From Candidatus Eisenbacteria bacterium (GTDB lineage Bacteria > Orphanbacterota > Orphanbacteria > Orphanbacterales > Orphanbacteraceae): a stretch of DNA of 40,000 nt. The position numbers and the translations under genes were made by a program. The stretch spans positions 1-40,000 of the forward strand of contig VGIW01000021.1 in NCBI GenBank assembly GCA_016867715.1, given 5' to 3'. Shown here in pieces: positions 1-24,364 of the stretch. A model generated the notes under the pieces. The model was not told where the DNA came from, did no database searches, and saw only the letters and a list, made by a program, of their open reading frames with translations. How positions within the stretch are numbered: the first letter of the stretch is position 1; the number at the start of each line of letters is the position of its first letter.

Positions 1-530
1 GGCTTCGGCAGCCGGAACCCATCGCGAAGCACCAGGGCGCGCAGCTCGTGACGCGACCCGAAGGAACTGCGATCCTCACCGCTCTGACGGATGGAGCGGA
101 CGAAGTCCTGCTGGAGCGTTGCGGCCTCCTCCGTCTGGTCAACCGGATGCCGGGCGAGGAAATCGGTAGACGCGAAATAGACAAAGACGTCCTTGCGCGG
201 CCCGCGCCTTCCGTGGAGGCGCTCGCCCAGGGCAAACCAATACTCCCACTGGGTGTAGGAGCGACGCGGCGCCCCGGCCTTCGGTACGCCGGGTTCGGGT
301 TCGGCACCATAGGCATCACCGATGAGGACGATAACGCGATCGCACTCGGCGATGTAGGCTTCGAGCTTCTCGAGCAGCGTGCGGCCGTGCTGTTGGAAAT
401 CTTCCTGTACCTTGACGTCGGCGCCAACGGCGCGAAGATCGCTCGCGAGCGCGTCGCGACAATCCTTGAACTGGCCTGAGACGGCGGAGAGGAAGATCCG
501 CGTGAAGATCCGCATGGAATCGGCACCCAT
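1..530 (-). CDS. DUF4062 (TIR-like) domain protein, N-terminal part
   Basis: This frame stays open on the minus strand from an ATG at 530 to the window edge, giving 176 residues with the C-terminus missing. The N-terminus reads MRIFTRIFLSAVSGQFKDC. It is followed by RDALASDLRAVGADVKVQED, a DCD-type segment ECDRVIVLIGDAYG near residues 60-75, and SYTQWEYWFALGERLHG. This is the layout of DUF4062: a beta strand, an Arg-bearing helix, an 'IGDxYG' turn and an 'EYxxA' helix. DUF4062 is a TIR/nucleotide-hydrolase-like fold that usually heads large multidomain signalling or STAND-type proteins. What follows the domain is out of view, so a defence role is only a possibility. A second in-frame ATG lies at 515. 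Neither ATG has a strong ribosome-binding site, and a promoter-like sequence ends about 6 nt before the first, so the message may be leaderless. Confidence 0.75.
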   Translation of the reverse strand, partial: MGADSMRIFTRIFLSAVSGQFKDCRDALASDLRAVGADVKVQEDFQQHGRTLLEKLEAYIAECDRVIVLIGDAYGAEPEPGVPKAGAPRRSYTQWEYWFALGERLHGRRGPRKDVFVYFASTDFLARHPVDQTEEAATLQQDFVRSIRQSGEDRSSFGSRHELRALVLRDGFRLPK

Positions 531-847
531 TGCCTAGCTTAGTCAACCGGCCCAATCGCCGTCAAGCGTTGGATGTTCTCGTGGCCACGCTCGGATGGCC
601 GGCTGTTGCGGCGCTGAGCGGTTCCCCGCGGACACTCGAGCTCGCGGGCGGCACCAGGCGCTGGCGCCGGGCGGTCTTCTCTTGGAAGACGCGGATCGTC
701 TGCGAATCGAACGCCGCCTCTTCGCGCATGCCGCGGCGGAGGTTAAAGGCTTGAAGCCGCAAGCGATCCCGCGCGCAGGAAGCGGCAACGAGTTCGATCT
801 CTCCATGCACCGCATGTCGACCACTCGAATGGCGCCGTCCGAACTCC
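531..847. other. 317-bp stretch with no confident gene
   Basis: This lies between the porin-like gene and the DUF4062 gene, both read leftwards. On the minus strand, 810-562 is an 82-codon frame starting with GTG and having fairly gene-like codon choice, but it resembles no family I know and lacks a clear ribosome-binding site. It could be a small gene or a remnant. No terminator hairpin was found for the porin-like gene. The stretch marks a junction between conserved housekeeping genes and accessory sequence. Confidence 0.5.
536..565 (-). promoter_or_regulatory. Possible promoter of the DUF4062 gene
   Basis: Read on the minus strand, TTGACG (565-560) is followed after 18 nt by TAAGCT (541-536). 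The -35 box matches 5 of 6 consensus bases and the -10 box 3 of 6. Transcription would begin at or next to the ATG at 530, implying a leaderless message or use of the ATG at 515. Confidence 0.35.
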
Positions 848-1864
848 TCACCGAACGAGAAGCGCTTCGGCGAAGAAGCTTCCCTCGCGATCCCCTTCTC
901 GGTCGGCGGAGCGGTACTCCGCCTTGAGGACGATCCAGGAACGGGGCGAGACGAGGATCCCGCCGAGAATGTCGACCCTTCTCTCCCCCGACGGGTTCTC
1001 CGATGGATCGATGAGGTCCGCCCCACCCAGGATCTCGATCGCGTCGAAACGCTCGGAGTACTCGACGATGCGATACGCGAGCCTCCCGTACGCCAGGTCG
1101 ATCGCCGCCTCTTCTTCCCCATCCCTCCGAAGCCTCCCCCACTCCGCCGCGAGGAAGAGAGGTCCGCCGCTCACGGAGAAGTCGAGGCCGAGGATCCGCG
1201 CACGCGCGGCGCCGTCCTCCTCGGCGTACGATCCCCCGATCTCGACGCCGGGCGTTGGGGAGAGCCCGACGCGCCCTCCGACCGCCTCGCCGCTCGTCCC
1301 CCCGAGCGGGCCGAGAAGCGTGTCCGCGAGCGCCGCGGGGAAGCCCTCGAGGATCCCCGCGGCGACGTTGAGCGCCCCGCCCACGAGATCGCCGAAGAGA
1401 GCGATCCCCTCGTTCGGGCCGCTCCGAAGGGGCGGGCGGAGGACGAACCGGTTCACGCGATGCGGCGCCCCGCGCGCCTCGATCCCGAACGGAAAGAGAA
1501 AACGTCCCGCGCGGAGGGAGAGCGCCCGCGGATGAACGCGAAGGTCCGCGCGCGCCTGCCCGAGGGCGAGCTTCGCCGGATCGTAGAAAGCGAGCCCTTC
1601 GGCGAAGTACGCGAGCCGATCGAAGAGGGTGCCCGCGGCCCAGATCCCCGAGGCGGCGCGCTCGGTGAAGCGCGTTCTCCACCCGCTCCCCTCTCCCTCC
1701 GGCTTCCGTTCGAGGACCCCGCTCGCCCCCGCGAACCCGTAGAGCCGAAGGCGATCTCTCTCCTCTTCGGGGAAGAAAACCTCGTGGCGATAGTTCCAGA
1801 CGCCGGACGCGAGGGCGGGGAACGCGCCGACGAGGAGAAGCACGAAAACCGCGGGGAGCCGCAC
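848..1864 (-). CDS. Porin-like outer-membrane beta-barrel protein
   Basis: A 338-residue protein with a Sec signal peptide (hydrophobic residues 5-19, then ALAS). The mature part alternates short amphipathic strands with Gly-rich turns. It contains LRAGRFLFPFGIE near residue 115, a motif typical of porins with a 'GRxxxPFG' strand, and later strands such as LFLAAEWGRLRR and WIVLKAEYRS. Export to the outer membrane is therefore inferred. It ends in LLVR rather than the usual aromatic residue. The start is GTG at 1864, preceded by GGAGG six bases upstream. It lies 12 bp downstream of yraN and is probably the last gene of the rplS-rnhB-yraN transcript. Substrate and exact family are unknown. Confidence 0.6.
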   Translation of the reverse strand: MRLPAVFVLLLVGAFPALASGVWNYRHEVFFPEEERDRLRLYGFAGASGVLERKPEGEGSGWRTRFTERAASGIWAAGTLFDRLAYFAEGLAFYDPAKLALGQARADLRVHPRALSLRAGRFLFPFGIEARGAPHRVNRFVLRPPLRSGPNEGIALFGDLVGGALNVAAGILEGFPAALADTLLGPLGGTSGEAVGGRVGLSPTPGVEIGGSYAEEDGAARARILGLDFSVSGGPLFLAAEWGRLRRDGEEEAAIDLAYGRLAYRIVEYSERFDAIEILGGADLIDPSENPSGERRVDILGGILVSPRSWIVLKAEYRSADREGDREGSFFAEALLVR

Positions 1865-1876
1865 GCCGCCCCTCCT

Positions 1877-2272
1877 CTAGTCGCCGGACCAGCAGCCGGT
1901 CGGCCGCCCGTCCCGATCGAATGCGTTTTCGATGTGAAGGATCTCCTCCGGACCGCCGGCAGGATCGGAGAGAGCGATGATGTCGAAGCGGCACGGCCGT
2001 TCGGCGAGGCCGTGCTCGACAAGGAATGCGGCGGCGGCGGAAGCGAGCCGGCGGCGCTTCCTCGGGCCGACCGTCTCCGCCGGAGAGCCGAACGCCTCGC
2101 TCCTCCGGAGACGGACCTCGACGAACACGATCCACCGGCCGCGCTCCGCGACGAGATCGATCTCCCCGCGGCGGGTCTGGTAATTCCGCGCGCGGATCCG
2201 AAAGCCGCGCCCCTCGAGGTGCCGCGCGGCGATCTCCTCCCCGCGCGCGCCCATCCGGCGGCGGCCGTTCAT
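1877..2272 (-). CDS. yraN: YraN family (UPF0102) nuclease-fold protein
   Basis: At 131 residues this is the normal size for UPF0102. The family's restriction-endonuclease-like core is visible: MGARGEEIAARHLEGRGF, then RNYQTRRGEIDLVAE (GEID at 36-39), then IVFVEVRLR near 48-56. In most members the last motif is VEVKxR, so the ExK lysine is replaced by arginine here. The start is the ATG at 2272, overlapping the end of rnhB by 4 nt; a second in-frame ATG lies six codons later. The rnhB-yraN pairing is common in bacteria. The biochemical role of the family is not well defined; it is often called a putative endonuclease. Confidence 0.9.
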   Translation of the reverse strand: MNGRRRMGARGEEIAARHLEGRGFRIRARNYQTRRGEIDLVAERGRWIVFVEVRLRRSEAFGSPAETVGPRKRRRLASAAAAFLVEHGLAERPCRFDIIALSDPAGGPEEILHIENAFDRDGRPTGCWSGD

Positions 2273-3003
2273 CGGGCCGCCCCCTCCGCCCCCCGCGTCT
2301 CCGCGAGGAACGGAACATGAAAGGTTCGACGATGAACCAACGACGGCCCGTGGGCGGCGATCGCCCGCGCGTGCTCCTCGGTCGGGTACCCTTTGTGGCG
2401 GTCGAACCCGTAGACCGGGAAGATCCGGTGGAAGCACTCCATCAGGCGGTCCCGGACGACCTTCGCCACGATCGACGCGGCGGCGATCGAGGGGACGAGG
2501 CGATCGCCGCCGGTCACGGCGATCTGGCGGAAGGGGAAGGGCTCGAGACGGACCCCGTCCACGAGGACATAGTCGGGCGGGAAGCCCAAGGCGCGCACCG
2601 CGCGGATCATCGCCTCGCGGGACGCCTCGCGGATGTTCCGGCGATCGATCTCCTCCTCGGAGGCGAGGCCGACGCCGATCCCGTCCGCGGAGTGGAGGAT
2701 CGAGGCGAAGAGAGCCGCCCGCCCCTCGGGAGAGAGGCGCTTCGAGTCGTCGAGACCGGAGGGGACGCGGTCCGGATGCAGACAAACGGCGGCGGCCGCG
2801 ACCGGGCCGGCGAGGGGTCCGCGGCCCGCCTCGTCCACCCCGACGATCCTCTTCCCTTCGCGCCAGCCGAGGGCGTTCTCGAGGTCGGGGGCCGTTCGCT
2901 CGCGGCGCGGGCGCCGGGCGGGAGACAGGAAGGCCGTCTCCGCGCGCGTCGCTTCGAGGAGACGGCCTGCGATTTCGGAGGAAAAGGCGCCCTCGGGGGC
3001 CAC
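2269..3003 (-). CDS. rnhB: Ribonuclease HII
   Basis: A 244-residue cytoplasmic enzyme that cuts the RNA strand of RNA-DNA hybrids, including single ribonucleotides left in DNA. The type 2 RNase H signature VGVDEAGRGPLAGP lies near residues 54-67 and supplies the first Asp-Glu pair of the active site. It is followed by DDSKRLSPEGR, then ASIVAKVVRDRLM, then GFDRHKGYPTEEH; these carry the other conserved family residues. The chosen start is GTG at 3003. It overlaps the rplS stop by one base (TAGTG) and has AAGGAGG ten bases upstream, so translation is coupled to rplS. About 50 residues precede the catalytic domain, somewhat more than in short family members. It overlaps yraN by 4 nt. Confidence 0.93.
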   Translation of the reverse strand: MAPEGAFSSEIAGRLLEATRAETAFLSPARRPRRERTAPDLENALGWREGKRIVGVDEAGRGPLAGPVAAAAVCLHPDRVPSGLDDSKRLSPEGRAALFASILHSADGIGVGLASEEEIDRRNIREASREAMIRAVRALGFPPDYVLVDGVRLEPFPFRQIAVTGGDRLVPSIAAASIVAKVVRDRLMECFHRIFPVYGFDRHKGYPTEEHARAIAAHGPSLVHRRTFHVPFLAETRGAEGAAR

Positions 3004-3347
3004 TACCCCCGGTCCTCCTTGAGGCGGGCGGAACGTCCGGTCCTTTCGCGCAGGAAGTAGAGGCGCGCGCGCCGCACCTTCCCCTTGCGGAGAACCTCCA
3101 GGGAGGCCACCGAAGGGGACTGGATCGGGAACACACGCTCCACGCCGATCCCGCCGCTTACCTTGCGGACCGTGAACGTCTCGGAGTGGCCGGAACCCTT
3201 CCTCTGGACCACCACTCCCTGAAAGACCTGGATGCGCTCTTTGTCCCCCTCGCGCACGAGGACGGACACGGCGACCGTGTCCCCCGAGGAGAACTCGGGG
3301 ATGTCCGTGCGGAGCTTGTCGGACTCGAGCCTGCGGATCGTATCCAT
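3003..3347 (-). CDS. rplS: Large-subunit ribosomal protein L19
   Basis: A 114-residue protein at the interface of the two ribosomal subunits. It is recognised by [49 protein letters not shown] and the C-terminal [16 protein letters not shown], all standard L19 blocks. ATG at 3347 gives MDTIRRLES, matching the usual L19 beginning, and AAGGA lies about 11 bases upstream. An in-frame ATG four codons earlier (3359) has that sequence pressed against it and is less likely. A strong promoter lies at 3396-3423. Normally L19 directly follows trmD in one transcript; here a plus-strand gene of about 1.6 kb separates them. Confidence 0.96.
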
Positions 3348-3676
3348 TGGCGTCACCATCCTTCGAAGGGGCCCCGGGACCCCGACAGACGCTTGAATGT
3401 ACCATAGATCCCCGCCCTGTCAACCCCGGAAAACGAGGGACAGAACCTGTTTCCGGCCCCTTTCCTTACGTCGCCAGGGCGATGGACACCTTTCTCCAGG
3501 GTGTCCGTCACCCGAGCGAACAAGGCGCGGCGGGAAGGGGCTCCCCGCCGAGCGGTCGCGTGTGTTATCCTGAACCACAATAATCGGAACGCCCCGCGGA
3601 GCGCGCGGCCAGAAACGGCTCCGCCGTGGAAGGCGTTGTCTTCCGTTTCGCGGGTCGGCGACCCAAGGAGGTGCTC
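3348..3676. other. Divergent regulatory stretch between rplS and the plus-strand secreted-protein gene
   Basis: This stretch has no gene. It contains the rplS promoter (3396-3423) and, on the plus strand, a possible extended -10 (TGTTATCCT, 3563-3571) with no good -35. A strong AAGGAGG ribosome-binding site precedes the ATG at 3677. A 13-base sequence at 3431-3443 (AAACGAGGGACAG) recurs at 24457-24469 upstream of the EF-G-like gene. Confidence 0.55.
3396..3423 (-). promoter_or_regulatory. Promoter of rplS-rnhB-yraN
   Basis: Minus strand: TTGACA (3423-3418, perfect -35), a 16-nt spacer, then TACATT (3401-3396), preceded by TGG, which gives an extended -10. It lies about 50 nt before the L19 start and explains how rplS is expressed apart from the trmD transcript. 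Confidence 0.7.
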
Positions 3677-5245
3677 ATGAAACGCAGGGCGATCGCGGCG
3701 GCGCTCCTTCTCTTGGCGGGGGCGAGCGCCGGAGAGGCCCAGATTGTCTTTGTCTTCGAGACCGTTCTTCAGAAAGGGGACGTGATCCCCGGGGTCGGCG
3801 CGGTGACCACCATCGACAACCTCGCGGTGAACGATCACGGCGCCTGGCTCGTCGAGGCGGACACGGACCACTCGAACACCAACGCGGACGCGGTGATCAT
3901 CCAAAACGGCGCGCTCTACCTTCGCGAGGATCAGCCCCTTCCGCGGCCCCCGGGATCGAGGCTCGACACGTTCGACTCGGTCCGCCTGAACAACCACGGG
4001 CACAGCGGCTGGAACTTCTTCCTCTCGGGGACGAGCGGAAGCCTCGACGACTCCGGGATCTATTACGACACGACGCTCGTCATCCAGGAGAGCGACATCT
4101 CGACCGCGCCCGGGTTCACTCCGGGAACCCCGTACATCGGGTTCTTCGAGACGCACATCAACGACGCGCGCGAGATTCTCATCGTGGCGAGCGTCGACGA
4201 CCCTGCGATCGCGACGAGCGTGGACCGCGCGCTCGTGATCGCGATGGTCGATTCGGTCGGGGACCTTCTCTCCGAGACGCTCCTCGCGATGGAGGGTGAC
4301 ACGCTTCCGGGCCAAAGCGAGGGGATCACCGACTTCGGAACCGGCCCCCACGAGAGCGCGTTCAACGATAGCGGAGACGTGCTCTTCTTCGCAGACCTCA
4401 CGGGAGCGACGACGACCGACGGCGTGATCTATCGGAACCTCACGCTCCTCGCGCAAGAAGGAAGCCCGTCCCCGCTTCCGGGACGGAACTACGAGACCCT
4501 CTCCTCGCGCGGGCTCGACCTGAACAATCAGGGTGGATACGTCTTCAAGGCGAACCTCGACGGGAGCACCGCGGACGATGAGGCGATCGTGAAGAACAAC
4601 ACGATCCTCGCCCGCGAGGGCGGAACGATGCCGGGCATCGCGCCGTACCTGCTCACGTCGTTCGGAACCGGGAGCGGCCCCGTGCAAATCGGCGACAACG
4701 GAAAGGTCGTCTGGTTCGGCGATTGGGACGATCCGAACACGAACATCGACACCGGGCTCTTCCTGGACAGCGTGCTGATCGTTCAGGAAGGGGTGACGAT
4801 GGTCGGGGACGATCTCATCGACGAGATCGCGAGCGGGCAGGACGCGTTCGACCTCTCGTCGAGCGGCCGGTGGCTCCTCTTCGAGGTGACCTTCACGAAC
4901 GGGAACAACGCGGCGGTTCTTCTCGACCTCACCGATCCGACCTCGGTGACGGAAGCGTCCGACCTCGTGTCTCCGGCAGTCCTCCAGGCGGCGCCGAACC
5001 CCTTCGCGAGCGGGACGACGATCCGCTTCGGTCTCACGGAACGGGAAACCGTGAGCCTTCGCGTGTACGATGTCCGCGGAAGGCTCGTCTCGGTTCTCGC
5101 GGACGGCGCGTTTTCGGCAGGCGAGCATGTCGTCTCCTGGAACGGGCGGGACGATCGGGGGCGGACCGCGTCGGCGGGCACCTACTTCGTCCGACTCCGG
5201 ACCGCGGACGAGAGCCGCTCGTTCCGGCTCGTGCGCGTGCGGTAG
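3677..5245 (+). CDS. Secreted repeat protein with C-terminal FlgD-like sorting domain
   Basis: A 522-residue exported protein. MKRRAIAAALLLLAGASAGEAQ is a Sec signal peptide; the ATG at 3677 follows AAGGAGG by six bases, so a further-upstream in-frame ATG at 3626 was rejected. Residues 25 to about 430 hold roughly six degenerate repeats of about 60 residues. Their pattern is 'N-D-G-x-V-x-F-x-A... L-A-x-E-G-x-x-x-P-G', clear in LTLLAQEGSPSPLPG and NTILAREGGTMPG, and it suggests a beta-propeller-like surface module. The last 80 residues (NPFASGTTIRFGL, VYDVRGRLV, SWNGRDDRGR, ASAGTYFVRL) form a FlgD Ig-like domain of the kind used as a C-terminal sorting or anchoring domain in FCB-type bacteria. 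The gene is transcribed against its neighbours and splits trmD from rplS. Its function is unknown. Confidence 0.85.
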   Translation: MKRRAIAAALLLLAGASAGEAQIVFVFETVLQKGDVIPGVGAVTTIDNLAVNDHGAWLVEADTDHSNTNADAVIIQNGALYLREDQPLPRPPGSRLDTFDSVRLNNHGHSGWNFFLSGTSGSLDDSGIYYDTTLVIQESDISTAPGFTPGTPYIGFFETHINDAREILIVASVDDPAIATSVDRALVIAMVDSVGDLLSETLLAMEGDTLPGQSEGITDFGTGPHESAFNDSGDVLFFADLTGATTTDGVIYRNLTLLAQEGSPSPLPGRNYETLSSRGLDLNNQGGYVFKANLDGSTADDEAIVKNNTILAREGGTMPGIAPYLLTSFGTGSGPVQIGDNGKVVWFGDWDDPNTNIDTGLFLDSVLIVQEGVTMVGDDLIDEIASGQDAFDLSSSGRWLLFEVTFTNGNNAAVLLDLTDPTSVTEASDLVSPAVLQAAPNPFASGTTIRFGLTERETVSLRVYDVRGRLVSVLADGAFSAGEHVVSWNGRDDRGRTASAGTYFVRLRTADESRSFRLVRVR

Positions 5246-5263
5246 GCGGAGACCGCGCCACTC

Positions 5264-5299
5264 CGAACGGCCGTCTTCCGCGAGGAGGGCGGCCGTTCG
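5264..5299. terminator. Bidirectional hairpin terminator
   Basis: CGAACGGCCG (5264-5273) and CGGCCGTTCG (5290-5299) form a perfect 10-bp stem between the convergent ends of the secreted-protein gene and trmD. There is no long T-run on either side, so its strength is uncertain. Confidence 0.6.
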
Positions 5300-5345
5300 T
5301 TCGTGGGGCTCTCCGGCGCCGAAACTGCGGCGCCGTAACTCTGCC

Positions 5346-6026
5346 TTACTTCTCCAGGAGATCCGGCCTTCTGCGGCGGGTGATCTCGAGAGCGCGGTCT
5401 CTTCGCCACGCGGCGATCTTCGCGTGGTCGCCGGAGAGAAGAACGTCCGGAACCTTCATGCCTCGATATTCAGGAGGCTTGGTGTAGTCGGGCGCGCCGA
5501 GAAGCCCGTTCGCGAAGGAGTCGGCGTCGGCGGAATCCTCGTTCCCGAGAACGCCCGGGACGAGGCGAATCGCGGCGTCCATGAGCGCGAGCGCAGGGAT
5601 CTCGCCCCCGGACAACACGAAATCGCCGATCGAGAGCTCAATGTCGACGAGCGCCTCGCGGAAACGCTCGTCCACGCCGCGGTAGCGCCCAGAGACGAGG
5701 ATCCACGCCTCCCCGGAGGCGATCTCCCGCACGCGCTCCTGCCGGAGCGGCTCCCCCTTCGGCGTGAGGAGAATGACCGGCACGCGGCTTCCTTCCGTCT
5801 CGCGCACCCACTCGACCGCTCGGAAGAGAGGCTCGGGCTTCATCACCATTCCCGGGCCCCCGCCGTAGGGGGTGTCGTCGGTCGTCTGATGTCGGTCCTC
5901 GGCGAAGTCGCGGAGGTTCACCGGGACGATCTCCGCCTTCCCCGCCGCGAGCGCCTTTCCGGTCACCCCCTCGGCGAGCGGCCCCGGGAAGAGGCCGGGG
6001 AAGATCGTGACGACGTAGAAGCGCAT
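5346..6026 (-). CDS. trmD: tRNA (guanine-37-N1)-methyltransferase
   Basis: At 226 residues this is a typical TrmD of the SPOUT (knotted) class. It methylates G37 next to the anticodon and prevents +1 frameshifting. Motifs in order: DDTPYGGGPGMVMKPEP near residue 50, LLTPKGEPL, SGRYRGVDERF, then the knot signature LSIGDFVLSGGEIPAL, and PDYTKPPEYRGMKVPDVLLS in the C-terminal domain. The ATG at 6026 has AAAGGA upstream. It lies 13 bp after rimM, the usual order, but is not followed by rplS. Confidence 0.96.
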   Translation of the reverse strand: MRFYVVTIFPGLFPGPLAEGVTGKALAAGKAEIVPVNLRDFAEDRHQTTDDTPYGGGPGMVMKPEPLFRAVEWVRETEGSRVPVILLTPKGEPLRQERVREIASGEAWILVSGRYRGVDERFREALVDIELSIGDFVLSGGEIPALALMDAAIRLVPGVLGNEDSADADSFANGLLGAPDYTKPPEYRGMKVPDVLLSGDHAKIAAWRRDRALEITRRRRPDLLEK

Positions 6027-6039
6027 CGATTTCCTTTGT

Positions 6040-6567
6040 CTATGGACGATTGATCTCCAAAAGACCGGCAGGAGGATCGACGATCATCCGGCCGCTTTCG
6101 AGATCGATCAAGACGACGATGCCGGGCGCCGCGGGGATGAGATGCTCTTCCTCCGCGCCCCGCACGCGGTAGAGATCCCCCGCCGGATACTCGAGGACCT
6201 CCTCGATCGTGCCGATCGCGCGTCCTTCCCTCGTCCAGACGGCGAGACCGACGAGCTCCTCGCGGAAAGGCCCCTTCGCGCCGGCCGCCTCGAGATCCCT
6301 GCGGTCAGCCCACGCCTCCGCCCCGCGGAGCCCCTCGGCCTCGGTCCGGTCGTCGATCCCTTCAAGCTTCAAGAGAAACACATCGCCGTGCGGGCGGACC
6401 GACTCGACGAGAAACGCGCGGATTTCCTCCTCCTCGTCGGCGAGAAAGACACGCCGGAGAGCGGGGAGGGCCGGATCGAGCAGGCGCGAGACCTTGAGGC
6501 GGACCTCGCCCCCGAGCCCGTGGACCCGTCCGATCGTCCCGAGATGAATGCGCGCCGCCTTGGGCAT
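6040..6567 (-). CDS. rimM: Ribosome maturation factor for the 30S subunit
   Basis: A 175-residue protein that binds S19 and helps mature the head of the small subunit. The N-terminal barrel begins IHLGTIGRVHGLGGEVRLK (residues 7-25) and includes DRTEAEGLRGAEAW. The C-terminal PRC-barrel carries IGTIEEVLEYPAGDLYRV and HLIPAAPGIVVLID, both standard. It sits 19 bp after khpA and 13 bp before trmD, the canonical order rpsP-khpA-rimM-trmD. Confidence 0.95.
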   Translation of the reverse strand: MPKAARIHLGTIGRVHGLGGEVRLKVSRLLDPALPALRRVFLADEEEEIRAFLVESVRPHGDVFLLKLEGIDDRTEAEGLRGAEAWADRRDLEAAGAKGPFREELVGLAVWTREGRAIGTIEEVLEYPAGDLYRVRGAEEEHLIPAAPGIVVLIDLESGRMIVDPPAGLLEINRP

Positions 6568-6586
6568 GGAGGACCCGCCGTCCCGG

Positions 6587-6817
6587 CTACTCGACGATCT
6601 CGAGGATCGCCTTCCGCCCCTCCTTCGCCGAGAGCACGCCGAGGAGAGAGCGGATCGAGCGGGCGGTGCGGCCGTTCTTTCCGATCACCTTGCCGAGGTC
6701 CTCCTTTGCGACGCGGAGCTGGAAGACCGTCGTGTCGTCCCTTCGCGTCTCCTCGACGCGGACTTGGTCCGGGCTTTCGACGAGGAGGCGCGCGATGTAC
6801 TCGATCAGATCCTTCAT
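6587..6817 (-). CDS. khpA: KH-domain RNA-binding protein KhpA
   Basis: A 76-residue protein made of a single KH domain. The nucleic-acid-binding GxxG loop is seen in KVIGKNGRTARSIRSLL (GKNG). The start region MKDLIEYIARLLVESPDQV matches the family. KhpA is a small RNA chaperone that in several bacteria pairs with KhpB to influence division and RNA stability. The ATG overlaps the rpsP stop by four bases (ATGA), so translation is coupled. Confidence 0.93.
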   Translation of the reverse strand: MKDLIEYIARLLVESPDQVRVEETRRDDTTVFQLRVAKEDLGKVIGKNGRTARSIRSLLGVLSAKEGRKAILEIVE

Positions 6818-7305
6818 TCCTTGGTTTCCTCGGGAGCCGCGCTCGCCTCGGGCGGGGCGGGAGCTTCCTCGACCGGCTTCTCATCCGCATGCGGAGCGCT
6901 CGCCTCGGGGGCCTTCACCTCGGCGACCGCCGCGGCCGCGCCGCGCCGCCTCTTCCCCTTCCCCTTCGATCCATGCTTGTCGAGCGGGTGCTCGAAGATC
7001 CGCACGGACCTCTTCTTTTCTTCATCGCGAAGCGCTTCCCCGCTCCGGTGGGTTTGGAACCGGGTGAGCACGCCGGTCTTCTCGAAGATCCTCTCGACGG
7101 TTTCGCTGAGCTGGACGCCCTCGCCGAGCCAGCGGAATGTCCTCTCCTGGTTCACTTGCACCTCCGCCGGGTTCACGAGCGGATTGTACGTACCGAGAAG
7201 ATCGATGTATCGTCCGTCGCGCGCCATCCGCATGTCGGCGACGACGATCCGGTAGAACGGCCCTTTCTTCCTTCCGTGTCTCGCGAGACGAATCTTGACT
7301 GCCAC
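6814..7305 (-). CDS. rpsP: Small-subunit ribosomal protein S16 with long acidic tail
   Basis: The first ~85 residues are a standard S16: MAVKIRLARHGRKKGPFYRI, VVADMRMARDGRYIDLLGTY, then NQERTFRWLGEGVQLSETV. Beyond the core there are about 75 extra residues: a basic stretch (KHGSKGKGKRRR) followed by an Ala/Pro/Glu-rich tail ending APEETKE. This makes 163 residues instead of the usual 80-95. The start is GTG at 7305, with AAAGGAG eight bases upstream; no ATG fits. The tail is probably disordered and may reach the solvent side of the ribosome. The gene lies 68 bp after ffh. Confidence 0.95.
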   Translation of the reverse strand: MAVKIRLARHGRKKGPFYRIVVADMRMARDGRYIDLLGTYNPLVNPAEVQVNQERTFRWLGEGVQLSETVERIFEKTGVLTRFQTHRSGEALRDEEKKRSVRIFEHPLDKHGSKGKGKRRRGAAAAVAEVKAPEASAPHADEKPVEEAPAPPEASAAPEETKE

Positions 7306-7373
7306 TTCTTCGACTCCTTTTCGAACCGATCGCGCGGTCCGACTCTCCTTTCTTCGGGCCAGGCGGCCCTCCG

Positions 7374-8690
7374 TCACATCCCCCAGGGGATTCCGGAGCG
7401 GCGGCCCTTCCCGGCGCGCCGCATCATCTTCCGCAGCATGTCGTACTGCCGGAGGAGCTGGTTCACCTCCTGCACGCTCGTTCCGCTTCCGCGGGCGATC
7501 CGGCGGCGGCGGCTCCCGTTCAGGACGACCGGCTCGCGGCGTTCCGCCGGTGTCATCGAGGAGAGGATCGCCTCGACCCGGGAGAGCGCCTTCTCGTCCA
7601 CGTCGAGCCCCTTCGGAAGGCGCGAGGCGCCGGGGAGCATCCCGAGGATCTGGTCGAGAGGCCCCATCTTCCGCACGCTCCGAAGCTGCTCGGCGAAGTC
7701 CTCGAGCGTGAAGGAGCGCTCGCGGAGCTTCCTGGCCAGATCGCGCGCCTTCTCCTCGTCGACGGCCGCCTCGGCCTTCTCGACGAGCGTGAGGACATCC
7801 CCCATCCCGAGAATGCGCTGCGCCATCCTCTCCGGATGGAAGTCCTCGAGCGCGTCGATCCCCTCGCCGGTCCCGATCAGCTTGACCGGCTTCCCGGTCA
7901 CCCTCCGGATCGAGAGGGCCGCCCCTCCTCGAGCGTCGCCGTCCATCTTCGTCAGGATGAACCCGTCGAGCCCGAGCGCCTCCTCGAACGCCGACGCCGC
8001 CCGCACCGCGTCCTGGCCGGTCATGCCGTCCACGACGAGAAGGATCTCGTGGGGCGAGGCGGCCGCGCGCACGCGGGCGACCTCGTCCATCATCTCCTCG
8101 TCGACGTGGAGGCGGCCTGCCGTGTCGACGATCACGACATCGAGGAGCTTCCCGCGCGCGAGGCGCACCCCCTCGGCCGCGATCGCCTCCGCCTTCGCGC
8201 CGGCCGCGCCTCGATAGACCTCGCACCCGGCGGCGCGCCCGAGCTGCTCGAGCTGCTCCGCGGCGGCCGGGCGGTGGACGTCGGCGGCGACGAGAAGCGG
8301 CTTCTTCCCCTTCCGCCGGAAGCGCACGGCGAGCTTCGCGGCGGCGGTCGTCTTCCCCGAGCCCTGGAGTCCCACAAGAAGAAGGACCGTCGGCGGCTGC
8401 GAGGCGAGAGGGATCGACGCGGCGCTCCCCCCGAGGAGGCGCACCATCTCGTCGTGAACGACCTTCACCACCTGCTGGCCCGGGCGAAGGCTTCCGAGCA
8501 CATCCGCCCCGACCGCTCGCTCGCGCACGGCGGCGAGGAAGTCCTTGACCACTCTATAGTGAACGTCCGCCTCGAGAAGGGCAAGCCGGATCTCGCGGAG
8601 CGCCGCCTCGACGTCCTTGTCCGAAAGCTTCCCCTTCCCCCGGAGCTTTCGAAACGCGGTCTCCAGCTTGGCGGTCAGATCCTGGAACAA
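7374..8690 (-). CDS. ffh: Signal recognition particle GTPase Ffh (SRP54)
   Basis: A 438-residue protein that binds SRP RNA and signal peptides at the ribosome and hands nascent membrane proteins to FtsY. The helical N domain covers residues 1-90. The G domain shows GLQGSGKTT (107-115), DTAGRLH (189-195), DGMTGQDA and TKMDGDARGG (247-256). The C-terminal M domain begins near 330, with MGPLDQILGMLPG and the SRP-RNA-binding segment around NGSRRRRIARGSGTS. Methionines cluster at the end (MLRKMM). It is the first gene of the ffh-rpsP-khpA-rimM-trmD block and has a promoter 43-71 bp upstream. Confidence 0.97.
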   Translation of the reverse strand: MFQDLTAKLETAFRKLRGKGKLSDKDVEAALREIRLALLEADVHYRVVKDFLAAVRERAVGADVLGSLRPGQQVVKVVHDEMVRLLGGSAASIPLASQPPTVLLLVGLQGSGKTTAAAKLAVRFRRKGKKPLLVAADVHRPAAAEQLEQLGRAAGCEVYRGAAGAKAEAIAAEGVRLARGKLLDVVIVDTAGRLHVDEEMMDEVARVRAAASPHEILLVVDGMTGQDAVRAASAFEEALGLDGFILTKMDGDARGGAALSIRRVTGKPVKLIGTGEGIDALEDFHPERMAQRILGMGDVLTLVEKAEAAVDEEKARDLARKLRERSFTLEDFAEQLRSVRKMGPLDQILGMLPGASRLPKGLDVDEKALSRVEAILSSMTPAERREPVVLNGSRRRRIARGSGTSVQEVNQLLRQYDMLRKMMRRAGKGRRSGIPWGM

Positions 8691-22085: not shown

Positions 22086-22112
22086 CGCGCCGCGCGGCTC
22101 GGTCCCTTCGGC

Positions 22113-22293
22113 AGCCTAGATCATGCCGCGCTTCCGTCGCGAGGGCGCGGAGCGCGCGCCGAGAGGCCGACCGGTACGAGCCGCTCCCGGAAACGTAGCC
22201 CCGGAGCTACGCTCTAGGAAGCGGCGATGGAAGGAAGGCCACTTGAGGCCGCGATCCGCGTCCGCAGTAGGAAGCGCGTGCATGATCTAGGCT
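22113..22293. repeat. 181-bp inverted-repeat element at the 3' end of the EF-G-like gene
   Basis: The left arm, AGCCTAGATCATGCCGCGCT plus TCC (22113-22135), recurs inverted at 22270-22293 with one extra base, so 23 of 24 positions match. Inside is a further hairpin: CGTAGC (22194-22199) and GCTACG (22206-22211). TAGGAAGCG occurs as a direct repeat at 22215 and 22268. The right arm runs into the stop codon of the EF-G-like gene. No target duplication is evident. It could be a miniature mobile element or an elaborate terminator. Confidence 0.6.
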
Positions 22294-24364
22294 ATGCCTC
22301 CTGCTTCGCCGCCTGCGCCTCCGTGACCACCTTCTCGGCGATCTCCTTCGGAACCTCCTCGTAGTGCGAGAACTCCCGCTCGACCCCGCCGCGCCCCTGC
22401 GTCAGCGATCGAAGATGAGTCGAGTACTTGTAGAGCTCCGAGAGGGGCACTTGCGCGCGGATCACCTGGAACGGTCCCTGCGAGTCCATCCCGAGGATCT
22501 TCCCTCGGCGCGACGAGAGGTCGCCCATCACGTCCCCCATGAACTCCTCCGGAACCGTCACCTTCACCACGTAGATCGGCTCGAGGAGCACCGGGTTCGC
22601 CTCGAGAAACCCCTTCTTGAACGCCATCGAGCCGGCGACCTTGAACGAGTTCTCCGACGAGTCGACGGCATGATAGGAGCCGTCGTAGATCGTCACGCGG
22701 AGGTCCACCACCTTGCATCCGGCGAGGACCCCCTCCTCCATCGCAGCGACGACCCCCTTCTCCACCGCGGGGATGAACTTCCCCGGAACCACCCCTCCCA
22801 CGACCTCGTCGACGAACTCGAAACCGCCCCCCCGCTCCTTCGGCTCCAGCTTGAGCCACACGTCGCCGAACTGCCCGCGGCCGCCGGTTTGTTTCTTGTA
22901 TCGACCTTGAACATCGGAACGACCCCGAATCGTCTCGCGATAGGGAATCCGCGGCTTCACGAGCTCGACTTCCACCCCAAAACGCTCCTTGAGGCGCCGA
23001 GCCTGAATATCGAGGTGCAGCTCGCCGAGCCCGCGGATGAGCGTCTGGCGGACATCCGGATCGTACCCGGCGTGGAAAGTCGGGTCCTCCTCCTGAAGCC
23101 GCGCGAGCCCGTTTGCGATCTTGTCCTCCTCGCCCTGGTTCTTGGCGACCACGGCGAACTCGATCACCGGCTTCGGGAAGGGGATCGGCGGAAGGAGAAA
23201 CGATCCGTTCGCTTCGCACACGGTGTCCCCCGCCTTCGTCTCGCGCAGCTTCACCGCCGCGCCGAGATCTCCCGCGCTGATCCGCGGCGTATCCACTCGC
23301 TCGCGCCCCTGAAGGAAGTAGAGCTGCCCCATCCGCTCCCCCTTCCCCTTGTTCGCGTTCGCGTAGTCGCGCCCCGGCTCCAGGGTCCCCGTGAACACGC
23401 GAAAGACCGTGAGCTCGCCCATGTGCGCCTCCGAAACGGTCTTGAAGGCGAGCGCCGCGGTCTTCCCGGAGTTCCCGACCTTGCGGGTCTCTCCTTCGGC
23501 GGAAACGACCTCGGGGCGATCGAGCGGCGAGGGACCCGCCTCCGCGACGGCGTCGAGAAGGAGATCGACGCCTACGAGCTTCGCGGCGGAGACCGCGAAG
23601 GCCGGACGGAGCGTGCCCCGGGCGATCCCCGCGCGGAAACCAGTGAGCAACTCCTCCTCGGTCAGCCCCCCTCCCTCGAGGTATTTCTCGACGAGAGCGT
23701 CGTCGGTTTCCGCGATCTGCTCGATCAGCTTCTCCCGCGCGGCGGCCGCCTCGGCCGCGTGAGACGCCGGGATCTCGATCTCCGCCGCCTTCCCCGACCC
23801 GTCGCCCGCGTAACGGAATGCCTTCATACGCAAAACATCGATTACCGAAGAGAACGACTCCCCCTCGTCGATCGGGAGCGTGACGGGGACGGTGCCGGGG
23901 ATGAGCGCCTCGCCGACCGATTCGACCGCTCGAGAGTAATCGGAGTGCTCCCGATCGGCTCGATTCACGACGATGAACGCCGGGAGGTTTCGCGCGCGCG
24001 CGAACTGGTAGCCTCTCTCGGTTCCGACCTCGACGCCCGACTGCGCGTCGAGGAGTAGGAGCACCGCGTCCGCGACCTGGGCAGCGGCGACGACGTCGCC
24101 GACGAAATCGGCGTACCCGGGAGTATCGATGAAGTTGATCTTGCGCTTCTTCCACTCCACGAAACCGAGGCTGCTTCGAATCGTGATCTTCCGCTTCTTC
24201 TCCTCGTCGTCGGAGTCGAAGTGGGAGGTTCCATCGTCGACCTTGCCGAGACGGCTCGCGGATTGGCCGACGAAGAGGAACGCCTCGGCGAGCGATGTCT
24301 TTCCAGAGCCCCCGTGGCCGATGAGGACCAGGTTGCGAAGGGCTTCCGTTCCGTACTCTTTCAC
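22292..24364 (-). CDS. EF-G-like translational GTPase (EF-G2 type)
   Basis: A 690-residue protein with the full five-domain EF-G layout. G1 is GHGGSGKTS (16-24), as in EF-G2-type paralogues, instead of the GHIDAGKTT of canonical EF-G. G3 is DTPGYADF (80-87). The G4 motif, normally NKxD, reads NRAD (134-137). Domain IV contains GRGQFGDVWLKLEP and GGVVPGKFIPAVEKG, and domain V GRRGKILGMDSQGP (as SSRRGKILGMDS). It probably acts on ribosomes, but whether it translocates, recycles or is specialised cannot be told from sequence. It is not in a str operon. The start is GTG at 24364, with AAAAGGAG seven bases upstream; an ATG seven bases earlier is out of frame. Confidence 0.92.
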   Translation of the reverse strand: MKEYGTEALRNLVLIGHGGSGKTSLAEAFLFVGQSASRLGKVDDGTSHFDSDDEEKKRKITIRSSLGFVEWKKRKINFIDTPGYADFVGDVVAAAQVADAVLLLLDAQSGVEVGTERGYQFARARNLPAFIVVNRADREHSDYSRAVESVGEALIPGTVPVTLPIDEGESFSSVIDVLRMKAFRYAGDGSGKAAEIEIPASHAAEAAAAREKLIEQIAETDDALVEKYLEGGGLTEEELLTGFRAGIARGTLRPAFAVSAAKLVGVDLLLDAVAEAGPSPLDRPEVVSAEGETRKVGNSGKTAALAFKTVSEAHMGELTVFRVFTGTLEPGRDYANANKGKGERMGQLYFLQGRERVDTPRISAGDLGAAVKLRETKAGDTVCEANGSFLLPPIPFPKPVIEFAVVAKNQGEEDKIANGLARLQEEDPTFHAGYDPDVRQTLIRGLGELHLDIQARRLKERFGVEVELVKPRIPYRETIRGRSDVQGRYKKQTGGRGQFGDVWLKLEPKERGGGFEFVDEVVGGVVPGKFIPAVEKGVVAAMEEGVLAGCKVVDLRVTIYDGSYHAVDSSENSFKVAGSMAFKKGFLEANPVLLEPIYVVKVTVPEEFMGDVMGDLSSRRGKILGMDSQGPFQVIRAQVPLSELYKYSTHLRSLTQGRGGVEREFSHYEEVPKEIAEKVVTEAQAAKQEA

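What the first reader, a model, noticed from the sequence alone, without database searches (positions are those of the whole stretch)
1..565. Truncated DUF4062 (TIR-like) gene at the left edge, possibly leaderless
A clear 176-residue DUF4062 N-terminus is read off the window edge. DUF4062 usually heads large signalling or STAND-like proteins, some in anti-phage contexts. Its promoter-like boxes sit so close to the ATG that the message may lack a leader. The gene lies next to a 317-bp stretch with no clear gene, at the end of the conserved block.
Basis: partly seen in the sequence, partly recalled or inferred. Interest (0 to 1): 0.5.

Follow-up and report, generated by a model that had tools for sequence, protein, structure and literature searches.

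The report
Immune-type sensor with broken mutation cassette
The cut-off gene is the front of a large immune-receptor-like bacterial protein whose sensor tip carries the marks of a targeted mutation machine, and the remains of that machine sit right behind the gene with a piece missing, so the sensor looks frozen.

Summary
The truncated DUF4062 frame is real. It continues in a second contig of the same assembly (C17), joined by a 126-nt exact overlap and supported by synteny. The whole gene (about 1107 codons) encodes DUF4062, a NACHT ATPase with hydrophobic segments between Walker A and B, and a C-terminal FGE/C-type-lectin domain. It lies on a ~4.7-kb insertion absent from three relatives. 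Directly behind it is a wrecked diversity-generating retroelement (DGR): about 17 codons of avd run into a DGR-type reverse transcriptase lacking its start; about 0.8 kb, which holds the template repeat in 21 of 29 comparable relatives, is gone. The FGE tip still bears a DGR signature: ten of ten hot codons are NNC, nine not Asn. The predicted catalytic Glu of DUF4062 is present. Two other genomes carry DUF4062-NACHT-FGE proteins with template-matched variable repeats, so the architecture is a real but rare DGR target (2 of 60 NACHT-FGE frames).

Best reading: a membrane-anchored, NADase-type STAND sensor once diversified by a DGR and now fixed. NADase activity, membrane insertion, sensing and freezing are inferred, not shown. 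The leaderless idea is not supported.

The parts
3..530 (-). 5' part of the DUF4062-NACHT-FGE gene (ATG at 530, alternative ATG at 515); continues on contig C17:1-2925 of the same assembly
   Evidence: open frame; DUF4062; overlap with C17; synteny
243..245 (-). codon of Glu96, aligned with a position that is Ala in the deposited KpSwz chain (the paper's structures used the E97A mutant) and Glu in human TEP1
6..131 (.). 126-nt exact overlap with the start of contig C17 (C17:1-126, reverse complement), where the assembly breaks
531..847 (.). left, gene-free part of the inserted segment, single copy in the genome; starts near one copy of an imperfect direct repeat that recurs near the other end of the insert
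848..1864 (-). host gene (beta-barrel/porin-like by eye) that flanks the insertion; its 83% identical orthologue in the same genus lies 741 nt from the orthologue of the large gene that flanks the insert on C17

Best explanation
The gene encodes a STAND-type sensor of about 1107 residues: N-terminal TIR-like DUF4062 (predicted NADase), a NACHT ATPase carrying hydrophobic helices inside the ATPase domain (predicted membrane anchor), a poorly predicted helical linker and a C-terminal FGE/C-type-lectin domain. The last 32 codons up to GFR form a DGR variable region: a reverse transcriptase once rewrote them from a template repeat, changing template adenines. A later deletion removed most of avd, the template repeat and the start of the reverse transcriptase, so the sensor is fixed at its last sequence. 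Likely action: ligand binding by the FGE tip releases the NACHT domain, which oligomerises and clusters DUF4062, which destroys NAD and stops the infected cell. SHOWN by sequence: domain order, insertion site, truncated retroelement, codon signature, Glu. INFERRED: NADase activity, membrane insertion, ligand sensing, loss of diversification.
For: Contig join: 126-nt exact overlap in frame. In G006 the two flanking genes lie 741 nt apart with one small gene between, and the empty site aligns to window 848 and C17 4019 with 10 nt between; in G005 and G002 the flanks lie 987 and 877 nt apart, too close for a 4.7-kb insert. Domains: FGE E 1.1e-51, NACHT E 5.6e-14; DUF4062 E 1.4e-13. A 4-sequence DUF4062 profile finds KpSwz (E 3.1e-9) and TEP1 (E 1.6e-7) in the PDB, with Glu96 in the catalytic column; the DUF4062 model aligns with nucleoside hydrolases and TIR domains at Z 10.7-13.2. 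Retroelement: an RT profile of 56 relatives matches from position 68 of 373; an avd profile matches residues 2-17 in another frame directly before it. In 29 relatives with avd upstream of RT on the same strand the same interval is 440-1098 nt, median 833, with the TR inside in 21 of 29. No TR found. Variable region: same length as 41 of 49 TRs, 10 of 10 hot codons NNC, p 1.0e-4; two true VRs give 10 of 10. Two relatives have DUF4062-NACHT-FGE proteins with A-directed VRs. Walker A-B distance is 217 residues here.
Against: No template is left, so adenine-directed change in this gene is read only from codon pattern and comparison, and the codon test has few negative controls. The assembly is a draft of 172 contigs: the deletion could be one variant in a population, as Dore et al. 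found for two broken loci (PMC10907252). avd was not searched genome-wide. The avd remnant rests on 16 residues (domain E 0.001 among 3 sequences). Membrane insertion rests on hydropathy and a low-confidence part of the model. G+C of the insert is close to the host's. Single-sequence phmmer of the window frame finds no PDB chain, and Foldseek's first hit for the DUF4062 model is a flavin-binding protein, with TM-scores to the query of 0.34-0.54 among the 50 rows shown. DUF4062 beside NACHT need not be active: of TEP1, NWD1, NWD2 and NPHP3 the preprint calls TEP1 alone the second active human TIR domain. Nothing here tests NADase activity or phage defence.
Confidence: 0.6

Rival explanations
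1. The DGR is alive in the population: the deletion is one structural variant that the draft assembly happened to represent, and other cells keep avd, template and RT and still diversify the sensor.
For: Dore et al. report from long reads an intact RT and TR variant of one broken locus and an intact RT variant of another (passage seen). The contig break in the DUF4062 gene, with two mismatches in the last five bases of C21, suggests some local heterogeneity.
Against: The break is about 3 kb from the deletion. No template match and no further RT of this lineage was found in the assembly: the other RTs that match it are on C8 (41% identical) and C69 (48%), outside its group in the tree. avd itself was not searched for genome-wide.
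Confidence: 0.2
2. The sensor is diversified in trans by another retroelement of the cell (complete DGR on C8, or the RT at the end of C69) using a template missing from the assembly.
For: Trans activity is proposed for some Thiohalocapsa targets. The genome has a complete DGR with 19 of 19 core mismatches at template adenines and a further DGR-type RT fragment at a contig end.
Against: The C8 template shares only a 32-nt stretch with this variable region, and BLAST of the last 366 nt of the gene found nothing but itself and short weak matches in the assembly.
Confidence: 0.12
3. The whole cassette is decaying and the DUF4062-NACHT-FGE protein is no longer made or used.
For: The retroelement is already broken and the RT frame has no ATG, GTG or TTG between those at 2828 and 3113 of L004, the stretch in which RT homology begins; the gene was not found in the other six of seven genomes of the family; no promoter match.
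Against: The sensor frame is open over about 1107 codons with Walker A, Walker B and the predicted catalytic Glu kept. No test of selection was possible for lack of close homologues.
Confidence: 0.2

Closest known systems
DGR-diversified NACHT/STAND targets with C-terminal CLec/FGE domain (Dore et al. 2024, PMC10907252; section 12 and passages seen)
   Same: Central STAND ATPase, C-terminal FGE/CLec with variable repeat, sometimes an N-terminal effector (TIR named there); degenerate loci beside complete ones in one genome
   Different: N-terminal DUF4062; hydrophobic segments inside the NACHT domain; template, most of avd and RT start deleted. DUF4062 does not occur in that paper's main text
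Swarozyc and TEP1, DUF4062 TIR-like NADases (preprint PMC13174449; abstract, figure legends and passages seen)
   Same: DUF4062 with Glu at the catalytic position; DUF4062 next to NACHT also in TEP1, NWD1, NWD2, NPHP3
   Different: KpSwz consists of DUF4062 and a portal-binding AUX domain; here a NACHT and a DGR-type FGE domain follow. No activity shown here
Acidobacteria (L131, 4183-6984) and Anaerolineae (L098, 8996-12790 minus) DUF4062-NACHT-FGE proteins found here
   Same: Same domain set; L098 has a kinase domain between DUF4062 and NACHT
   Different: Template and variable repeats present (13 A-type and 1 other mismatch in L131; 16 and 0 in L098) and avd present; no hydropathy peak between Walker A and B
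KAP P-loop NTPases (recalled, no call)
   Same: Transmembrane helices inserted in the P-loop domain
   Different: Here the ATPase matches NACHT, and no KAP family was among the Pfam matches up to E 0.1

Membership tests
Diversity-generating retroelement | DGR-type reverse transcriptase | tested here: inconclusive
   RVT_1 59.1 bits against a cut-off of 29.6; up to 74% identity to RTs of which 59 of 80 sit in loci with A-directed TR/VR pairs; YVDD kept; but the first 67 of 373 profile positions are missing
Diversity-generating retroelement | Template repeat | tested here: not met
   none in C17:1-12000; BLAST of the variable end against the assembly gave only itself and short weak matches
Diversity-generating retroelement | Accessory protein Avd | tested here: not met
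   only residues 2-17 remain at this locus; intact bAvd in the C8 and G004 loci
Diversity-generating retroelement | Variable repeat with adenine-directed substitutions | tested here: inconclusive
   10 of 10 hot codons NNC, p 1.0e-4, length equal to 41 of 49 TRs; no own template to compare with
DUF4062 TIR-like NADase family | DUF4062 domain | tested here: met
   profile match to KpSwz and TEP1; alignment to TIR and nucleoside hydrolase folds
DUF4062 TIR-like NADase family | catalytic Glu (KpSwz E97, TEP1 E1008) | tested here: met
   Glu96 invariant in 4 of 4 aligned members and aligned to an Ala of the KpSwz chain and a Glu of TEP1; that these are residues 97 and 1008 is inferred, the chain numbering was not checked
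DUF4062 TIR-like NADase family | NAD hydrolysis | not testable with these tools
   biochemistry
Swarozyc | portal-binding AUX domain | not tested
   no search with the AUX domain was run
STAND/NACHT sensors diversified by DGRs | NACHT with Walker A and B between N-terminal effector and C-terminal FGE/CLec | tested here: met
   the FGE part also matches Treponema denticola variable protein 1 in the PDB at E 3.1e-11
STAND/NACHT sensors diversified by DGRs | RT in clade 5D of Dore et al. | not tested
   their tree was not rebuilt
KAP NTPases | match to the KAP family profile | tested here: not met
   not among the 17 Pfam matches up to E 0.1

The most novel reading that the evidence does not exclude
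A horizontally acquired, membrane-anchored NADase receptor that a retroelement tuned by hypermutation and that was then locked by deletion of the template: a bacterial immune-type receptor passing from diversified to fixed specificity, with helices spliced into the ATPase domain coupling ATPase state to the membrane.
Probability: 0.3. Interest if true: 0.78.

Novelty: new variant of a known kind. Interest (0 to 1): 0.55.

Why it matters
It links two recent findings that I did not find joined in print: DUF4062 as an NAD-destroying domain, and retroelement-diversified STAND sensors. In the held library no paper contains both 'diversity-generating retroelement' and 'DUF4062' (open-licence PMC papers only). 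If the reading holds, bacteria have attached a hypermutated antigen-type sensor to an NADase trigger in at least three lineages (this one, an Acidobacteria MAG, an Anaerolineae MAG), and this locus shows how such a sensor can become fixed. The two relatives that still have a template (L131, L098) make the idea directly testable.

Tried and rejected
Searches for the sensor itself gave little: no relative of its NACHT part in genome contigs or viral contigs, where exact peptide patterns seed the search. A search of 39 whole genomes behind 40 of my 80 loci gave 8 matches in 7 of 39 genomes at E 1e-30 or better, 28-35% identical over about 300 residues. Five of those eight loci (L142, L144, L145, L148, L149) could be parsed by my script; their Walker A-B distance is 73-82 with no hydrophobic segment between. 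In the plasmid collection 88 records match; the 15 listed, all cyanobacterial, align only from behind the inserted segments, and the three I read (H1, H5, H12) lack them.

Template search by own scripts: a first strict scan of L004 printed nothing; a scored scan and a wider one found the templates of the C8 and G004 loci but none in C17:1-12000. One search, unlike 56, used a speed filter. Of 80 relatives 59 have a pair and 21 do not; many of the latter are short contigs. The repeat finder showed no template among the 20 largest of its 39 direct-repeat families.

The SFxNL-type motif count for RT starts (20 of 80) was too strict to be useful and is not used. The codon test has few negative controls: of six other FGE genes (five of this genome and that of G004) the true VRs of C8 and G004 gave 10 of 10, C80 7 of 10 (p 0.096), C42 10 of 10 without a template found or an RT on its contig, and C133 and C48 had no 32-codon motif to score.

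Insertion mechanism: no convincing terminal inverted repeat; no transposase was noticed, but none was searched for. A direct repeat of 9 nt (about 14 with one mismatch by eye) begins 7 nt inside the left end and ends 4 nt inside the right end; suggestive only. Foreign origin by composition: not supported. RT tree: C17 RT groups with one row each of Planctomycetota, Calditrichota, Nitrospirota and Verrucomicrobiota (85/93, below the starred level), away from C8, C69 and G004; C8 is a long branch. In the alignment for folding (A5) I used 50 of the 60 targets, leaving out L064, L069:2100, L079, L082, L095:8988, L106, L113, L119, L131:197 and L132:145, by no fixed rule.

Corrections made on re-check: the flanking genes of the relatives are near neighbours, not immediate ones; six, not five, other FGE genes were looked at; confidence lowered from 0.62 to 0.60 because avd was not searched genome-wide.

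Full report
What was reported. The window's left edge holds 176 codons of a DUF4062 gene on the minus strand (Pfam E 1.4e-13). The window is the start of contig C21 of a 3.5-Mb assembly in 172 contigs.

Where the gene goes. A search of the own genome with the window's first 1500 nt gave one other strong match: the first 129 nt of contig C17, in reverse (a third, 40-nt match at E 6.9e-4 also lies on C17). The first 126 nt of C17 are identical to window 131..6, and the DUF4062 frame continues in C17 without a stop to 2925. The join does not rest on the overlap alone. The gene flanking on the window side (848-1864, minus) and the large gene on the C17 side (4737-8471) lie 741, 987 and 877 nt apart in G006, G005 and G002 (in G006 one small gene stands between). 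The G006 sequence aligns to the window down to 848 and to C17 from 4019, with 10 nt between. So the gene sits on an insertion of 4734 nt (716 from the window plus 4018 of C17). The sensor was not found at E 1e-10 in the other 6 of 7 genomes of the family; the phylum search returned the same 7.

What it encodes. 133 codons from the window plus 974 from C17 give about 1107 residues. Pfam on the C17 part: NACHT in two stretches (best 303-429, E 5.6e-14), FGE-sulfatase 757-963 (E 1.1e-51) and a weak HEAT match. Walker A is at residue 137 and Walker B at 354 of the C17 part. Of 60 NACHT-FGE frames in relatives, 55 show both motifs to my pattern, 71-120 residues apart (one counted at 235 because of an earlier P-loop-like match), and 1 has a hydropathy peak between them. 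Here three to four hydrophobic segments lie between residues 187 and 283, depending on the threshold, and the model draws helices there with low confidence. Most of the rest of the NACHT and FGE domains is predicted with pLDDT above 80; Foldseek's best PDB matches are FGE-fold proteins and, further down, NLRC4 and NLRP7.

The effector end. The preprint PMC13174449 (abstract, legends, passages) reports that DUF4062 is a TIR-like NADase, that KpSwz needs E97 for phage defence and NAD loss, and that human TEP1 has DUF4062 beside NACHT and is active; NWD1, NWD2 and NPHP3 share the layout but are not claimed as active in the passages I saw. A profile of four members (window, C22, L131, L098) finds KpSwz and TEP1 chains. 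In the alignment Glu96 of the window protein stands where the KpSwz chain has Ala; the paper's KpSwz structures were made with E97A, and TEP1 has Glu there. That the Ala is residue 97 is my inference. The window protein alone found no PDB chain, and Foldseek ranks a flavin-binding protein first for the model of this domain, with TIR-containing proteins next and flavodoxins among the top rows. A second look by VIA-align gives Z 10.7-13.2 in the 50 rows shown, nucleoside hydrolases first, then TIR domains. A fold shows no activity.

The sensor end. The last part of the FGE domain has the form of a DGR variable region. 59 of 80 have template/variable pairs whose mismatches fall at least four to one on template adenines. 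Of 61 loci with a pair (the C8 and G004 loci included), 49 templates could be read from an RGG-type start to GFR, 41 of them 32 codons long, the length found here. Ten positions are AAY in at least half of those 41. At all ten the C17 gene has NNC codons, nine of them not Asn, against 40% C at third positions of the gene (p 1.0e-4). The true variable repeats of C8 and G004 give 10 of 10 as well; C80 gives 7 of 10, C42 10 of 10.

The broken retroelement. Behind the stop codon an ATG (L004 2997) preceded by GGAGGT (by eye) opens about 17 codons that match the start of avd, and then, in another frame, the RT profile begins at position 68 of 373. RVT_1 is over its cut-off and the YVDD box is kept. 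In 29 relatives with avd upstream of RT on the same strand, the same two points are 440-1098 nt apart, median 833, with the template between them in 21. Here they touch. The RT frame has no ATG, GTG or TTG between those at 2828 and 3113 of L004. No template was found in C17:1-12000 or, by BLAST, in the assembly. The most economical history is one deletion of about 0.8 kb.

Context. Of 60 NACHT-FGE frames in the 80 loci, scanned over their first 350 residues, 2 have DUF4062: L131 and L098. Both carry variable repeats matched to a template in the same locus, 13 adenine and 1 other mismatch in 114 nt and 16 and 0 in 124 nt, and both loci have avd. Among the 25 of 37 families listed, other possible effectors are calcineurin-like phosphatase (3), PNP_UDP_1 (2), EAD8 (2), SIR2_2, TIR_2 and kinase (1 each). 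So DUF4062-NACHT-FGE is a rare but real DGR target form. The C17 RT is 69% identical to its best relative by E-value and up to 74% over a shorter match; 53 of the 80 are Chloroflexota. It is only 51, 41 and 48% identical to the RTs of G004, C8 and C69, and in the tree it groups with rows of four other phyla at moderate support. Acquisition from outside is likely, the donor unclear.

What is known. Dore et al. 2024 (PMC10907252) describe DGR-diversified NACHT and nSTAND1 sensors with CLec domains, TIR among N-terminal effectors, degenerate loci, trans activity and, from long reads, intact variants of broken loci (section 12 and passages). Kaur et al. 2020 (PMC7159879; passages) describe FGS domains joined to conflict systems. 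DUF4062 occurs in neither main text, and no paper of the held library has both terms. This bounds what I searched, not the literature.

Judgement. Domain order, insertion and broken retroelement: about 0.9 sure. Frozen NADase sensor as a working unit: about 0.6. It is a new variant of a known kind, not a new kind. The leaderless reading is left without support.

Noticed in passing
L023 (G000:C8:50000-59474): VP 4325-6712 minus, VR 4338-4471, avd 3336-3656 minus, RT 2206-3624 minus, TR 2033-2166: Complete DGR in the same genome; its target is a protein kinase-FGE protein, all 19 core mismatches at template adenines.
   Followed up: partly
L030 (G000:C69, end of contig), 3185-3613 minus: C-terminal piece of a further DGR-type RT, cut by the contig end; groups with the RT of G004.
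   Followed up: partly
G000:C66:10111-10725 (L011, L029): The strongest RVT_1 match of the genome, in an open frame of 1037 codons; its kind was not examined.
   Followed up: no
L028 (G000:C42), VR-like codons from 3114: FGE gene with 10 of 10 NNC hot codons but no RT on its contig and no template found in the assembly: possible orphan variable repeat.
   Followed up: partly
L025 (G000:C22:1-2838 minus) and L027 (C133 end): A second DUF4062-NACHT-FGE gene with no RT match on these contigs; the two contigs overlap by 369 nt at 95% identity inside the FGE domain, so the assembly is heterogeneous there.
   Followed up: partly
L035 (G004:C36): VP end 1-489, avd 666-1046, TR 1057-1187, RT 1405-2472: Complete DGR in another genus of the family, 21 of 21 mismatches at template adenines.
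   Followed up: yes
window 22105-22300: Palindromic MITE-like repeat of about 190 nt with 47 matched places in the genome, some of them two pieces of one copy; folds far better than shuffles, z -7.0. One copy lies just upstream of the C22 DUF4062 gene.
   Followed up: partly
L026 (G000:C48) 3373-3959; L029 (G000:C66) 6496-7433: Two 290-nt direct copies 96% identical beside an FGE gene; and a tandem array with a unit of about 73 nt.
   Followed up: no
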